Assembly: GCF_900106765.1 (NCBI RefSeq)
Contig: NZ_FNNG01000001.1
Span: 189,774 to 253,773 of the forward strand
DNA length: 64,000 nt
Direction: 5' to 3'
Source of the DNA: Tepidimicrobium xylanilyticum
GTDB lineage: Bacteria > Bacillota > Clostridia > Tissierellales > Tepidimicrobiaceae
Part shown: piece after piece, positions 5,942 to 14,106 of the stretch
Layout: each line of letters starts with the position of its first letter
Position numbering within the stretch: position 1 is the first letter of the stretch
Notes under the pieces: model-generated
The model's database searches: none
The model's input: the letters and a program-made list of their open reading frames with translations, nothing else
What the model was told of the DNA's origin: nothing
Program-made: the position numbers and the translations under genes

Positions 5942-6631
5942 CTAAACATTTAATAATAAATTTGAAATTTGCTCAAATCTTTCATCACTAATACCAAGTT
6001 TCTTCTTAAATGGTTCACCTTCCATTCTTGCAATAATTACCTCATCAGGAGATATCTTCTTAATAATATCCTTTATCTTCTCAACAGATTCTTCATCATC
6101 ATTGTAGCCCTTAATAATAGTAACTTCAAATATGAATTTCCCTTCATATTGCTTATTAAATAAGGCCATATTTGAAATATACTCTTCCAAGGTATATCCT
6201 CCAATTGGTCTTTGGACTTTTTGAAAATCTACTTCAGTTATTACCTTTATCTCTCCAATAACCTCATCGCATTTATTAGCAATTTCCATATATTCATCTT
6301 TACCTAATAAATATCCATTAGATAGCAGTCTTACAGATACTCCCTTACTTTTTATTAGGTCAATTATATCGTTGATTCTGCTATTTAAAAGGGCTTCTCC
6401 CTTTGAATTAATGTAAACTAAATCTATTTCATTATTTTCTATCATATTGTCTAGCTCTTTTAATGAATTATCAATTTCCTTAAATGCTTGTTGTACGTCT
6501 ACCTTATTGTGTGTTCGCCCTATAGGGCAGAAAATACAATCAAAATTACAGTACTTTTCAGGAAGTATGTCCACTTCTAATACTCTTTTACCATCTTCTA
6601 TATAAATTTCTTTATAACTGAAGTTGTTCAT
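5942..6631 (-). CDS. Radical SAM protein
   Basis: About 229 residues with the radical-SAM cluster motif CNFDCIFC (CxxxCxxC) near residue 31, followed by the barrel pattern VYINSKGEALLN and VSVRLLSNGYLL. It lacks a C-terminal SPASM-type cysteine cluster. The family uses a [4Fe-4S] cluster and S-adenosylmethionine to make a 5'-deoxyadenosyl radical; the substrate here is unknown. The second ATG (6631) is preferred because GGAGG sits 6 bases before it and overlaps the first. It is 15 bases downstream of the B3/4 gene and shares its riboswitch-controlled transcript. Confidence 0.85.
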   Translation of the reverse strand: MNNFSYKEIYIEDGKRVLEVDILPEKYCNFDCIFCPIGRTHNKVDVQQAFKEIDNSLKELDNMIENNEIDLVYINSKGEALLNSRINDIIDLIKSKGVSVRLLSNGYLLGKDEYMEIANKCDEVIGEIKVITEVDFQKVQRPIGGYTLEEYISNMALFNKQYEGKFIFEVTIIKGYNDDEESVEKIKDIIKKISPDEVIIARMEGEPFKKKLGISDERFEQISNLLLNV

Positions 6632-6646
6632 ACTCATCCTCCTAAC

Positions 6647-7354
6647 CTAATCTATGGTTATTTCTTTGTGGTTAATATCTAAAATTGAAATCCTGTTAGT
6701 CCCACCTAAATTGTCCTGTACCAATTTTGACAAGTCCTCTAATGCACTCTCAAATTCTTTCAATCTACTTTCATCAATCAGTTCAATACATAAAAAAGCA
6801 TTAGTCGTATCTTCTGTAAGCATTGTCCTTACTGCTTCACGCCAGTTCCAGCATCTGCAAATTGCCCCTTTATCATCCTTATAAACTATTTCACCCTCAT
6901 ATGGTGGTAAATTCTCATCTGCCCCAAGTGGAATAAATTCCTCATTACCAATAGCTGTAGTCAACCTTATATTGCTTACAAACTTGTCTATGTCCTCACC
7001 ACCACATGGTAATGCATACTTTAAAGAAATAGAGTTATAAATGTCAACTAGCGGATTGATATTTCCTATATGGTTCCCCTTATAAACCCTCTTTAACAAT
7101 GCCTCTATAGATGACCTGGCCCCTTTTTTCGTCTTAAATTTCTTAAATGCTTCTCTCCAAACCTTTACTACAGGATTATTGCTAAATTCATCATCTTGCA
7201 AATATCTTAATGCTTCCTTTTCTGCCTTTGAAATCATTTCTACATACTTTTCTCTATCTTTTACTCTATTATCAATGCTTCGACAGATAACAACTCCAAT
7301 TTTAGCGTTTGGGAACATTTCCCAAAAAGAATCTTCAATGATAAATTTTTTCAT
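6647..7354 (-). CDS. Stand-alone B3/4-domain protein (PheT editing-domain-like)
   Basis: 235 residues resembling the solo B3/4 family, relatives of the editing domain of the phenylalanyl-tRNA synthetase beta chain. Family segments include VWREAFKKFKTKKGARSS, NINPLVDIYNSISLKYALP and ICRCWNWREAVRTMLTEDT. Such proteins are candidate trans-editing factors that deacylate mischarged tRNA. One characterised member, CtdA, removes canavanine from tRNA-Arg. The start follows GGGAGGA. It is the first gene behind a guanidine-I-type riboswitch, which agrees with a role against guanidino compounds such as canavanine. The exact substrate is inferred. Confidence 0.85.
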   Translation of the reverse strand: MKKFIIEDSFWEMFPNAKIGVVICRSIDNRVKDREKYVEMISKAEKEALRYLQDDEFSNNPVVKVWREAFKKFKTKKGARSSIEALLKRVYKGNHIGNINPLVDIYNSISLKYALPCGGEDIDKFVSNIRLTTAIGNEEFIPLGADENLPPYEGEIVYKDDKGAICRCWNWREAVRTMLTEDTTNAFLCIELIDESRLKEFESALEDLSKLVQDNLGGTNRISILDINHKEITID

Positions 7355-7385
7355 TTAGATTCCTCCCAAATTACATATTTAAAAT

Positions 7386-7515
7386 AAAAAAGCCTTAAGA
7401 AATATTATTAAATATCTCTCAGGCTTTTATCCTTCCGTGAACACAGTATTTATACTGTGCGTTTTCTCTCGGACCAGCCAGCTATAAGCTGCGGAACCCT
7501 AGAAAACTTAATATA
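7386..7515 (-). ncRNA. Guanidine-I (ykkC-type) riboswitch with terminator
   Basis: Minus strand, in order: CTAGGGTTCCGC, GCTGGTCCGAGAG, a hairpin ACACAGTATaaATACTGTGT, CACGG, AGGATAAAAGCCTGAGAG. These are the conserved blocks of the ykkC class as I remember them. The 3' part overlaps a terminator (AAGCCTGAGAGATATT against AATATTTCTTAAGGCTT, then TTTTTT) ending ~25 bases before the B3/4 ribosome-binding site, so ligand binding would allow read-through. Variants of this fold sense ppGpp or PRPP, so the ligand should be checked against the covariance models. Confidence 0.8.
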
Positions 7516-7551: not shown

Positions 7552-7580
7552 ATTATAACATAATATCATAAGAAAATCAA
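7552..7580 (-). promoter_or_regulatory. Sigma-A promoter of the riboswitch operon
   Basis: Minus strand: TTGATT (7575-7580), 17-bp spacer, TATAAT (7552-7557), placing the RNA start about 30 bases before the first conserved riboswitch block. Confidence 0.85.
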
Positions 7581-9998: not shown

Positions 9999-10460
9999 TT
10001 ATTCGTATTCAAAAACATCTACTCTGCATATTGTCGGATAATTCTTAGCCCAATTTCGAACAGCTTGTACTTGTTCCATTGTATGTACCAAAATATACGT
10101 TTCATCTCCATAGTGTTCACTAGTAAAAATATCTTCATTTTCTCTTATTAAAGTTAATGTAAACCATTTTATATATCCTTCTTCAGTCAAAAAATTTGTT
10201 AAAATCTCTTCTTTTAATTCAGAAACCATTTTCCCCTTATAAACTATTTCCTTTGTTTCATTGTTAGGTACTTTTTCCCCAAACTTTTCTCCAGATTTGA
10301 TACCTTCTAAGTCATCTTCCCATAGCCTCATTTCAAATTCATCTGCATTTTCAAGAGCTTTTTTGACTAAATCTACCCACCATTCATAACTATCTAAAAT
10401 CGGTGCCATATTGTTAGCAAAATCCTTTTTACGGACCATAAACATTATATTATATTTCAT
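9999..10460 (-). CDS. Unknown protein (parent of two decayed copies)
   Basis: 153 residues from the ATG at 10460, which follows AGGAGG; an upstream in-frame start at 10487 has none. I do not recognise the family. It has no signal peptide or membrane helix, is acidic, and has a regular C-terminal pattern (EQVQAVRNWAKNYPTICRVDVFEYE region) suggesting a small alpha/beta domain. Two fragments matching its C-terminus lie at 1150-1300 and 7648-7683, so it belongs to a locally duplicated family. It stands alone, in the same direction as the flavoprotein gene. Confidence 0.7.
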   Translation of the reverse strand: MKYNIMFMVRKKDFANNMAPILDSYEWWVDLVKKALENADEFEMRLWEDDLEGIKSGEKFGEKVPNNETKEIVYKGKMVSELKEEILTNFLTEEGYIKWFTLTLIRENEDIFTSEHYGDETYILVHTMEQVQAVRNWAKNYPTICRVDVFEYE

Positions 10461-10498
10461 TAACTTCCCTCCTATTTCTTGCCCCAAGTTACTATATA

Positions 10499-10724: not shown

Positions 10725-11777
10725 CTATAGTTTTATAAATTTAATTTTATCCCTATTCTTTATACATTCCATGATATCCAAATAATCGTCATGGACCTTT
10801 CCTATTACATTTACTCTATCGTCTCGAGAAAAGTTTTGTCTTAATATTTGAATTTCCCCAGAGTACCTCTTGTATTTTATATTGTCCATGGTAATAGAAC
10901 CTCTTTTTCTAGGTATACAGTTAAAGGGCTCCTTTAATTCTCCAGGGGTACCATATTCCCTAGACTCCTGCAGGCGCATTAAGCTCCTTGGTGAGTCAGG
11001 CCTAATGGTAAATACTTTATCGTACAGATATTCATACTCAGGTAAAAATTTTACGGGAATGTTTATAATTCCTTCCTTAATATAGTCGGTAATTAGCTTT
11101 CCTTCAAATTTAGATATTTTAACATCCCCAACAAATACCGCATCGACCCCATAATTTACAACTAAATCTAAAAAGGCCACATATGGAGAAATCTTCCTAT
11201 GTTTTTCTAAAGTTGGCAGTCCTTCATATATAGGACCTCGTTTCATCTCATCCCCTGGAATAAAGGCTAAAGTTTTTATCCCCAATTTTTTAAGCCCATC
11301 ATTTATTATATAAAAATCCTCTGGATCTAGTCCCGTCTCGGGTCTAGGATAAAAGTTGTGTAGCCCATAAACAATAGTGCTAATATCCAAAATCTTCTTA
11401 GCCATAACCTCATCTTCCGTTGAAGGATTAAAAGATATTGGATATTCTTTAGCAATTTCTAAAATTTCCTCTTGGCTAAAACCATAATCTAAACGTAAAA
11501 TGTCAATCCCCATATCCTTAGCAAATTCCACTATGGAATGATATTTAAAGAATTCCAGAGTTTTCGACGACACATCTCCAATTATTTTAAAATTCCTTTC
11601 ATTAAGCCATTTACACATTTTCACTGCCTTTTGGAAATAATCCTCCATGCTATTAAACTCCTCCTGCATATGGAAAGAAGTGAATACAAAGTATCCACTT
11701 CCTACATATTGTTCTAACATTTCCTTTTGAATATCGAAGGTGGATAAATAGACTGATAAACCAAATCTATTAAGCAT
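10725..11777 (-). CDS. mupG: MupG-type 6-phospho-N-acetylmuramidase (DUF871)
   Basis: 350 residues of the DUF871 family: N-terminal TIM-barrel start MLNRFGLSVYLSTFD, ILRLDYGFSQEEI, IVYGLHNFYPRPETGL and a C-terminal cyclophilin-like domain. The Staphylococcus aureus member, MupG, cleaves MurNAc-6-phosphate-GlcNAc, the disaccharide delivered by the MurP transporter. It overlaps the end of murP by 8 bases and is last in the murQ-murP-mupG operon, so it probably hydrolyses imported phosphorylated peptidoglycan disaccharide in the cytoplasm. Confidence 0.92.
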   Translation of the reverse strand: MLNRFGLSVYLSTFDIQKEMLEQYVGSGYFVFTSFHMQEEFNSMEDYFQKAVKMCKWLNERNFKIIGDVSSKTLEFFKYHSIVEFAKDMGIDILRLDYGFSQEEILEIAKEYPISFNPSTEDEVMAKKILDISTIVYGLHNFYPRPETGLDPEDFYIINDGLKKLGIKTLAFIPGDEMKRGPIYEGLPTLEKHRKISPYVAFLDLVVNYGVDAVFVGDVKISKFEGKLITDYIKEGIINIPVKFLPEYEYLYDKVFTIRPDSPRSLMRLQESREYGTPGELKEPFNCIPRKRGSITMDNIKYKRYSGEIQILRQNFSRDDRVNVIGKVHDDYLDIMECIKNRDKIKFIKL

Positions 11778-13194
11778 TGTCTACATCCGAAGTTCTTATG
11801 AATATATTGGTTATGATAAATCCACCTATATAGGAAATGAGTATTCCCAGGAAATAGTTTAGCATGGAATCAGGTTGCATAAGGGGGATGGCTACTAGAC
11901 CCGATGGCCCCCAGGCAGTGGCCAATACCTTAGATGCCATAACATATGCTCCTCCAAAGCCTGCTCCTAAGCCTGCTGTAATGAAGGGCTTTCCTAATGG
12001 AAGAGTTACTCCATAAATTAATGGTTCTCCAATTCCCAGAACTCCTGCTGGCAGTGCTCCCGCAATTACCGACTGCAACCTCTGGTTATTAACCCTTTTG
12101 GCTTTAAAATATATAGCTATGGCTGCCCCTACTTGGCCAGCTCCTGCCATAGCAAGTACTGGGAATAAGGATACTCCTCCCATTGATTCTAATTGGATGG
12201 CATAAATTGGAATTAGTCCATGGTGTAATCCCAGCAGAACCATTGGTAAGAATACTGCTGATAGTATATAACCAGATATAATATTTACAATTGTGTTATC
12301 AGAACTTATAAAGATACTTAGAACTTTTACAAGTCCATCGGAAATAAAACCAGATACAGGCATTATAATCAGTACTAAAGCCAATCCTGTAATTAACAGT
12401 GTTATAAGGGGAGTAAGAATTATGTCCAATACGTCTGGTACGATTTTTCTTACTCTCTTCTCAATCTTGGAAAGTAGATATACTCCAAAGATTACACCTA
12501 TGATTCCACCTTTTCCTGTAGTAAGGATCGAATTTAAAGGCACTTCTGCATCATATAATCCAAATAATTGAGAAATGTTGTTAATCTGTGCTCCAATAGT
12601 CATGGCCCCAATCATTCCACCTAATGCTTCCGTTGCTCCAAATCTTTTAGCGGCATTGACTCCCGTATATATAGCAAAATAGCCTAAGAAAGCTGCTCCT
12701 GTTAGAGCAAACATCAACTGAATGAAATTCCAGAAAGTATTAGTAGGTAAATTCCCGTTATTTTGTAGTGTACTTATTAAGGATGCAAATCCATTGAATA
12801 TACCTGCTGGTATAATGGCAGGAATAAGAGGAATAAAGATACCTGCAATAGTTTCCAGCCCTGCTTTAATAGGTCCTTTCTTCTGTTTTGCTTTAATATC
12901 TGCTTTGGTCTCCTGCCAATCTTCTTCTACTTGAGTGTCAACTTCAAATCCAAATTCATCTGCAAATATATCTGCTAGTTTCTTAGCGGTACCTGGTCCA
13001 ACTACTACCTGTAGTGCATCGGTACCTGTAACCCCTAGTACACCTTCCGTGTTCCTTAAATCCTCCATTTTTACCCTCTCCGTATCTTTTACATTAATAC
13101 GGAGCCTTGTCATACAGTTGGTTACGGTAATTATGTTCTCTTCGCCACCAACCAACTCGAGTATCTTTTTAGCTAATTCCTTATTTTTAGCCAT
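11770..13194 (-). CDS. murP: PTS EIIBC transporter for N-acetylmuramic acid
   Basis: 474 residues. The N-terminal EIIB domain carries the phosphorylated cysteine in TNCMTRLRINV near residue 28. About ten membrane helices of the glucose/sucrose-type EIIC domain follow, with the motif ALPAGVLGIGEPLIYGVTLPL. No EIIA domain is fused, so a separate EIIA must donate the phosphate. Its place between murQ and mupG assigns it to MurNAc or MurNAc-containing disaccharide. The start has an AAAGAGGTG site; 18 bases separate it from murQ. Confidence 0.92.
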   Translation of the reverse strand: MAKNKELAKKILELVGGEENIITVTNCMTRLRINVKDTERVKMEDLRNTEGVLGVTGTDALQVVVGPGTAKKLADIFADEFGFEVDTQVEEDWQETKADIKAKQKKGPIKAGLETIAGIFIPLIPAIIPAGIFNGFASLISTLQNNGNLPTNTFWNFIQLMFALTGAAFLGYFAIYTGVNAAKRFGATEALGGMIGAMTIGAQINNISQLFGLYDAEVPLNSILTTGKGGIIGVIFGVYLLSKIEKRVRKIVPDVLDIILTPLITLLITGLALVLIIMPVSGFISDGLVKVLSIFISSDNTIVNIISGYILSAVFLPMVLLGLHHGLIPIYAIQLESMGGVSLFPVLAMAGAGQVGAAIAIYFKAKRVNNQRLQSVIAGALPAGVLGIGEPLIYGVTLPLGKPFITAGLGAGFGGAYVMASKVLATAWGPSGLVAIPLMQPDSMLNYFLGILISYIGGFIITNIFIRTSDVDNA

Positions 13195-13212
13195 ATTTAC
13201 ACCTCTTTCTTT

Positions 13213-14106
13213 TTAAGTTATAATCTTTCTAATATGTCCATTGGCTTCAGCCAATTTTTTCTCGGCTTCTTCTCTATCACAGTTTAATAGAATCATTGTA
13301 ATTGCTAATTTTACACTGCCACCAGCCTTTTCAAGGGTTTCTCTTGCTATTTTCCTATCCACACCTGTGGCGACCACAACAATGTTTTCTGCTCTACTTT
13401 GTAATTTAATATTATTTAGCTGTACATCCACCATAAGGTTTTTATATGCCTTTCCAAGGCCTACCATGGATATGGTGGAAATCATATTAAGCACCAATTT
13501 CTGAGCTGTACCTGCCTTAAGCCTAGTGGAACCAGCCAGAACTTCCGGTCCTACCACCACCTCAATTGCTATATCCGCTATTGCTCCTATTTCAGAGTTT
13601 TTGTTACAAGCAATAGCTACAGTTTTACAACCTATTTCCTTAGCATAGTTAAGAGCTCCTTTTACATAGGGAGTTCTGCCACTGGCTGCAATGCCAACTA
13701 CTATATCCTTTGAATTCAATCCTATATTTTTTAGGTCATCTGCTCCCAATTCCATGCTGTCTTCTGCTCCCTCAATAGCTTTTACAAAAGCTTCTTCTCC
13801 TCCTGCAATCAAACCCTGTACCATCTCCGGTGGAGTCCCAAAGGTTGGAGGACATTCTACTGCATCTAAAACCCCTAAACGGCCACTGGTTCCTGCCCCT
13901 ACGTATATGAGCCTGCCACTATTATTAAAGGTCTCTATTACTGCCTTTACAGCCTTTTCTATCTGAGGAATTTCTTTTTTTACAGCTATTGCTACCTTCT
14001 GGTCTTCCTCGTTCATAATCTCCAATGCTTCCCTGATAGGCAGGATGTCCAAATCCTGAGTCCTTTCATTGATCTGCTCAGTGGACATCTTACTTAAATC
14101 TAACAT
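13213..14106 (-). CDS. murQ: N-acetylmuramic acid 6-phosphate etherase
   Basis: 297 residues with a SIS domain: GRLIYVGAGTSGRLGVLDAVECPPTFG, VVGIAASGRTPYVKGAL, AGTAQKLVLNMIST. MurQ removes D-lactate from MurNAc-6-phosphate, giving GlcNAc-6-phosphate for recycling. The glutamates of EGAEDS and the ECPPTFG region are in place. The start follows AAGGGGAG. It is the first gene of the operon; no murR regulator gene is nearby, but a 14-bp palindrome lies 50 bases upstream. Confidence 0.97.
   Translation of the reverse strand: MLDLSKMSTEQINERTQDLDILPIREALEIMNEEDQKVAIAVKKEIPQIEKAVKAVIETFNNSGRLIYVGAGTSGRLGVLDAVECPPTFGTPPEMVQGLIAGGEEAFVKAIEGAEDSMELGADDLKNIGLNSKDIVVGIAASGRTPYVKGALNYAKEIGCKTVAIACNKNSEIGAIADIAIEVVVGPEVLAGSTRLKAGTAQKLVLNMISTISMVGLGKAYKNLMVDVQLNNIKLQSRAENIVVVATGVDRKIARETLEKAGGSVKLAITMILLNCDREEAEKKLAEANGHIRKIIT

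What the first reader, a model, noticed from the sequence alone, without database searches (positions are those of the whole stretch)
6647..7515. Guanidine-I-type riboswitch controls a B3/4 trans-editing-like protein and a radical SAM protein
The leader has the ykkC blocks and an overlapping terminator. Known guanidine-I targets are exporters, carboxylases and transporters. The solo B3/4 protein CtdA removes canavanine from tRNA-Arg, and canavanine breakdown yields hydroxyguanidine. A riboswitch sensing a guanidino compound and inducing a tRNA-proofreading protein would be a logical detoxification circuit. The radical SAM partner is unexplained.
Basis: partly seen in the sequence, partly recalled or inferred. 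Interest (0 to 1): 0.76.

Follow-up and report, generated by a model that had tools for sequence, protein, structure and literature searches.

The report
Guanidine-riboswitch canavanine-defence operon with radical-SAM enzyme
A guanidine-sensing RNA switch in a Clostridia-type bacterium controls a protein that strips the plant poison canavanine from arginine tRNA; that link is already published, but the switch also controls a strongly conserved radical-SAM enzyme of unknown role that seems not to have been described in this setting.

Summary
Window 7414-7513(-) is a Guanidine-I aptamer (RF00442, 86.9 bits, cut-off 63), with a terminator overlapping its 3' block. It precedes a solo B3/4 protein (6647-7354) whose best PDB relative is CtdA, and 9 nt later a radical-SAM protein (rSAM, 5942-6637). 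Hauth et al. 2023 showed that CtdA deacylates canavanyl-tRNAArg, including a Clostridium homologue under a guanidine-I riboswitch, and that hydroxyguanidine also triggers such a switch; C. difficile ctdA is likewise catalogued. What is open is the rSAM. In related genomes a 66-80% identical rSAM follows ctdA by about 20 nt in 38 of 72 assessable loci. It also sits in riboswitch-gdx-rSAM operons without ctdA in three genomes. Its neighbours include guanidine/drug exporters and a relative of the canavanine acetyltransferase LcGNAT. I infer an anaerobic enzyme of canavanine/guanidino detoxification; its substrate is unproven, and a tRNA- or protein-modifying role is not excluded. I found no paper linking this rSAM to guanidine riboswitches. 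Known circuit, with one apparently unreported conserved component.

The parts
7552..7580 (-). candidate promoter TTGATT-17-TATAAT with TG before the -10
   Evidence: consensus scan, 10 of 12; a match is not proof
7414..7513 (-). Guanidine-I riboswitch aptamer
   Evidence: RF00442, 86.9 bits vs cut-off 63; subtype-1 marker A present
7388..7428 (-). intrinsic terminator overlapping the aptamer 3' block (expression platform)
   Evidence: hairpin plus T run, -18.2 kcal/mol, z -5.2
6647..7354 (-). ctdA-like solo B3/4 protein, 235 aa; RBS GGGAGG at 7367-7362
   Evidence: PF03483 100 bits; 9f7e CtdA E 1.3e-28; sequence
5942..6637 (-). radical SAM protein, 231 aa (probably 229 aa from ATG 6631), CxxxCxxC C30/C34/C37
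   Evidence: PF04055 49.4 bits; 34-member alignment with invariant cluster motif; model pLDDT 85

Best explanation
This is a canavanine-defence operon of a Tissierellales-type anaerobe under a guanidine-I ON switch. Guanidine (or hydroxyguanidine) released from canavanine binds the aptamer, the overlapping terminator does not form, and a two-gene message ctdA-rSAM is made. CtdA hydrolyses canavanyl-tRNAArg so that canavanine does not enter proteins. The radical SAM protein is inferred to be an oxygen-sensitive enzyme of the same detoxification, most likely acting on canavanine or a guanidino breakdown product (about 0.5 for this part alone). Shown here: aptamer class, overlapping terminator, gene identities, tight gene pairing across genomes, rSAM under guanidine-I with and without ctdA. 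Shown by others on homologues: CtdA activity and guanidine/hydroxyguanidine response. Inferred: the same activity and ligand here, and everything about the rSAM's substrate.
For: Aptamer and terminator; A at the guanidine marker position where this genome's purL-linked aptamer has C (marker from PMC6031431). CtdA is the best PDB match; orthologues of 74-76% identity in three C. difficile genomes lie behind guanidine-I aptamers and are followed by an intact rSAM in two of the three; published catalogue entry for C. difficile ctdA. rSAM directly behind ctdA in 38 of 72 assessable loci, 32 of these with guanidine-I upstream. Riboswitch-gdx-rSAM without ctdA in three genomes. A PaiA/LcGNAT-type acetyltransferase near ctdA in 11 of the 80 loci, 78-90% alike in five Clostridium loci, matching 8osp, the canavanine acetyltransferase structure, E 3e-36. 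Exporters gdx, EamA-type and MATE in the same clusters.
Against: No activity was measured. The rSAM is absent from about half of the ctdA loci and decayed in three, so it is dispensable for CtdA. Six ctdA-rSAM clusters have no recognisable guanidine-I aptamer within the sequence held. The riboswitch-rSAM association (Fisher p 3e-6) ignores shared ancestry; the tree-aware test had too few resolved pairs to decide.
Confidence: 0.8

Rival explanations
1. The rSAM modifies a macromolecule (tRNA, as TYW1 does, or a protein, as PFL activase does) to support translation during canavanine stress, rather than acting on a small guanidino molecule.
For: Nearest folds are PFL-AE and TYW1; partner CtdA acts on tRNA; a 47% relative on a Thermovirga plasmid lies beside a PP-loop protein.
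Against: It occurs with gdx but without ctdA in three operons; no Cys upstream of C30, hence no TYW1-type second cluster; no glycyl-radical enzyme in the operon; scores far below the TYW1, NrdG2 and PFLA cut-offs.
Confidence: 0.2
2. The B3/4 protein edits another mischarged tRNA and guanidine only reports general guanidino stress.
For: B3/4 domains also serve PheRS editing; activity is untested here.
Against: Closest solved relative is CtdA; a distant Clostridium homologue under guanidine-I control prevents canavanyl-tRNAArg accumulation; canavanine-acetyltransferase-like genes beside ctdA.
Confidence: 0.08
3. The aptamer is a ppGpp or PRPP variant of the ykkC fold.
For: The fold is shared among subtypes, and this genome does carry a subtype-2-like aptamer before purL.
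Against: 86.9 bits to Guanidine-I and the A marker in CCGAGAG; the purL aptamer has C and 62.7 bits.
Confidence: 0.01
4. The rSAM is an unrelated passenger carried downstream of ctdA.
For: Lost or decayed in several genomes.
Against: Conserved start-to-stop at 66-80% identity; found under guanidine-I independently of ctdA in three genomes; gene order reversed (rSAM before ctdA) in Acetoanaerobium, so the association is not one frozen arrangement.
Confidence: 0.08

Closest known systems
Guanidine-I riboswitch-controlled ctdA of Clostridium perfringens and C. difficile (Hauth et al. 2023, PMC10018355; PMC11477304)
   Same: Riboswitch class, gene order riboswitch-ctdA, solo B3/4 protein; two of three C. 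difficile genomes examined here also carry an intact rSAM behind ctdA
   Different: The published accounts that I could read do not mention the radical SAM gene; a gdx search of this genome found none, so its only strong guanidine-I switch drives ctdA-rSAM
Guanidine exporter operons (guanidine-I before gdx/sugE)
   Same: Same riboswitch; gdx is inserted ahead of ctdA or rSAM in many relatives
   Different: No exporter in this operon
LcGNAT, canavanine acetyltransferase (8osp, PMC10416765)
   Same: A related acetyltransferase joins the ctdA clusters of several Clostridium and Bacillus genomes and of a Lactococcus plasmid
   Different: Absent from this operon; substrate of the clostridial relatives untested
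Radical SAM families TYW1, PFL activase, viperin
   Same: Fold and CxxxCxxC cluster motif
   Different: 14-19% identity; below all NCBIfam cut-offs; one cluster motif, 229-231 aa, no accessory domain

Membership tests
Guanidine-I riboswitch (RF00442, ykkC subtype 1) | covariance-model score above the curated cut-off | tested here: met
   86.9 vs 63 bits
Guanidine-I riboswitch (RF00442, ykkC subtype 1) | adenosine at the position equivalent to A46 (pyrimidine in ppGpp/PRPP types) | tested here: met
   CCGAGAG in window vs CCAAGCG before purL (marker)
Guanidine-I riboswitch (RF00442, ykkC subtype 1) | ligand-dependent ON switching through an overlapping terminator | tested here: inconclusive
   terminator overlap met; ligand response cannot be measured here
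CtdA, canavanyl-tRNAArg deacylase | stand-alone B3/4 domain without synthetase | tested here: met
   235 aa, PF03483 alone; the genome's long (810-aa frame) B3/4 protein is elsewhere
CtdA, canavanyl-tRNAArg deacylase | sequence relation to characterised CtdA | tested here: met
   9f7e E 1.3e-28 over residues 64-208
CtdA, canavanyl-tRNAArg deacylase | deacylation of canavanyl-tRNAArg but not arginyl-tRNAArg | not testable with these tools
   needs biochemistry
Radical SAM superfamily | CxxxCxxC motif in a partial TIM barrel | tested here: met
   C30-C34-C37 invariant in 34 rows; Foldseek to radical SAM enzymes, E 1e-8
TYW1 (4-demethylwyosine synthase) | family score and N-terminal cysteines for a second cluster | tested here: not met
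   35.6 vs 318 bits; no Cys before C30
PFL/glycyl-radical activase | family score and a glycyl-radical partner gene | tested here: not met
   34 vs 232 bits; no such gene in the operon

The most novel reading that the evidence does not exclude
The radical SAM protein is the uncharacterised anaerobic enzyme that breaks canavanine down to guanidine (the old E. faecalis activity cited in PMC10018355 has no known gene), so the operon would make its own riboswitch ligand and the guanidine riboswitch would be a canavanine-degradation sensor in anaerobes.
Probability: 0.12. Interest if true: 0.75.

Novelty: new member of a known kind. Interest (0 to 1): 0.42.

Why it matters
The circuit links a guanidine sensor to proofreading of tRNAArg against a plant toxin. 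That link is known; this locus adds a widely conserved, apparently undescribed radical SAM enzyme as a regular member of the guanidine-I regulon of clostridia. Identifying its substrate could show how anaerobes handle canavanine, where free guanidine comes from, and why guanidine is a sensible signal, which are open questions in riboswitch biology.

Tried and rejected
ppGpp/PRPP aptamer: rejected. TYW1, PFL-activase and viperin membership: scores far below cut-offs. Solved homologue of the rSAM by sequence: none. Function from neighbours of distant rSAM relatives: uninformative or single cases. A PLP gamma-lyase (methionine-gamma-lyase family, below the equivalog cut-offs) precedes a second rSAM in C. 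muellerianum, and a remnant of such a gene follows the rSAM in Tepidibacter; tempting as a canavanine gamma-lyase, but no close orthologue was found in 43 other related genomes, and the 62% identity of the remnant is no higher than for ordinary family members in that segment, so it counts only as a hint. PLP genes near ctdA in L075 and L078 look like cystathionine-lyase types and are probably chance. Tree-aware test of the riboswitch-rSAM association: too little resolution. No paper found for radical SAM together with guanidine riboswitch or canavanine in this sense.

Full report
The observation. On the minus strand of the window lie, in order, a promoter-like site (7580-7552), a Guanidine-I aptamer (7414-7513, RF00442, 86.9 bits, cut-off 63), a terminator hairpin whose 5' arm is the conserved 3' block of the aptamer (7428-7388, -18.2 kcal/mol, z -5.2), a 235-aa solo B3/4 protein (6647-7354) and, 9 nt on, a 231-aa radical SAM protein (5942-6637). 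No terminator-like site was found between the two genes, so one message is likely.

Which ykkC subtype. Published structures give a simple marker: guanidine-I aptamers have an adenosine where ppGpp and PRPP aptamers have a pyrimidine (PMC6031431). The window reads CCGAGAG (A); the genome's second ykkC aptamer, in front of a gene that I read as purL and scoring 62.7 bits, reads CCAAGCG (C).

The B3/4 protein. The best solved relative is 9f7e, named CtdA Canavanyl tRNA Deacylase (E 1.3e-28). Eighty loci in other genomes encode relatives at 66-83% identity or so. Hauth et al. 2023 showed canavanyl-tRNAArg deacylation by CtdA, prevention of canavanylation by a Clostridium perfringens homologue that is under a guanidine-I riboswitch, frequent control of such genes by guanidine-I and -IV riboswitches, and triggering of a guanidine-I riboswitch by hydroxyguanidine. 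A 2024 review lists C. difficile ctdA behind a guanidine-I riboswitch.

The radical SAM partner. Of 72 loci with enough flank to judge, 38 have an intact rSAM behind ctdA (median gap 19 nt); 32 of the 42 loci with a guanidine-I aptamer and 6 of the 30 without have it (Fisher p 3e-6, not corrected for ancestry). The 33 loci with an aptamer pattern that I sent to Rfam were all confirmed. The Bacillus and Brevibacillus loci have neither aptamer nor rSAM; these are aerobic or facultative genera by general knowledge. On a ctdA tree the two traits need at least 17 and 18 changes, and the pairs on well-supported branches are too few for a test. In an even sample of 291 genomes of the class, the closely related rSAM occurs in six; five of these lie in a guanidine-I operon, four with ctdA and one as riboswitch-gdx-rSAM without ctdA; five of the six belong to one family. 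Two Sedimentibacter genomes show the same riboswitch-gdx-rSAM order, away from their ctdA. So the rSAM belongs to the guanidine-I regulon in its own right.

Company kept. Between riboswitch and ctdA, relatives insert gdx (SugE-type guanidine exporter) or an EamA-type transporter (the EamA assignment is my reading). Three clusters without aptamer have a MATE-type transporter next to ctdA and rSAM (family assigned by reading the sequence). A PaiA-type acetyltransferase, related to the canavanine acetyltransferase LcGNAT (8osp, E 3e-36; PaiA 1tiq scores slightly better), is near ctdA in 11 of the 80 loci and on a Lactococcus plasmid in the order MarR-GNAT-ctdA-MFS. These look like canavanine/guanidino detoxification neighbourhoods, and the rSAM is a regular member in the clostridial ones.

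What the rSAM might do. Thirty-four members share invariant C30, C34, C37 and C123 and conserved NSKGEA, LLSNGY, GEIK, QRP and KGYND segments. The AlphaFold model (pLDDT 85) is nearest to PFL activase, TYW1 and viperin at 14-19% identity. Membership in those families fails: scores are far below the curated cut-offs, there is no second-cluster cysteine set, and no glycyl-radical partner. I commit to a small-molecule role in canavanine/guanidino detoxification (about 0.5 for this part), with macromolecule modification as the main rival (0.2). The oxygen-sensitive chemistry of radical SAM enzymes would fit its restriction to anaerobes, which is inference.

This organism. A search of the genome with a clostridial Gdx found nothing (an empty answer is weak evidence), so its one strong guanidine-I switch seems dedicated to ctdA-rSAM. 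Overall: a correct observation, a correct but published interpretation, and one conserved gene that appears undescribed in this context. The literature searched is limited to openly licensed papers; Nelson et al. 2017 and the supplements of the riboswitch papers could not be read, so an earlier mention of the rSAM cannot be excluded.

Noticed in passing
L002 1501-1603(-) (G000:C1:56092-56194, outside the window): A ykkC aptamer just under the Guanidine-I cut-off (62.7 bits) in front of what reads as purL: a likely PRPP-type riboswitch.
   Followed up: partly
L193 5007-7895(-) (Clostridium muellerianum): A second rSAM copy behind an EamA-type transporter and a PLP gamma-lyase, divergent from a guanidine-I-gdx-ctdA-rSAM operon; the lyase could be a canavanine gamma-lyase.
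   Followed up: partly
L173 256-1814(+): An rSAM relative 27 nt behind a formate/nitrite-transporter-like gene, without ctdA or aptamer.
   Followed up: no
L208 2851-4654(+) (Thermovirga lienii plasmid): A 47% rSAM relative beside a PP-loop ATPase, a hint towards tRNA modification.
   Followed up: no
L207 3539-6434(+) (Acetoanaerobium noterae): Order MATE-rSAM-ctdA, reversed relative to clostridia and without a guanidine-I aptamer.
   Followed up: partly
window 9999-10487(-): A 162-aa protein without Pfam match; a protein of similar length and look appears in a Tissierellales genome (L116 6891-7376).
   Followed up: no
window 10725-14106(-): Three genes that read as a PTS transporter, MurNAc-6-phosphate etherase (MurQ-like) and a DUF871-like protein: probably ordinary cell-wall sugar recycling.
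   Followed up: no
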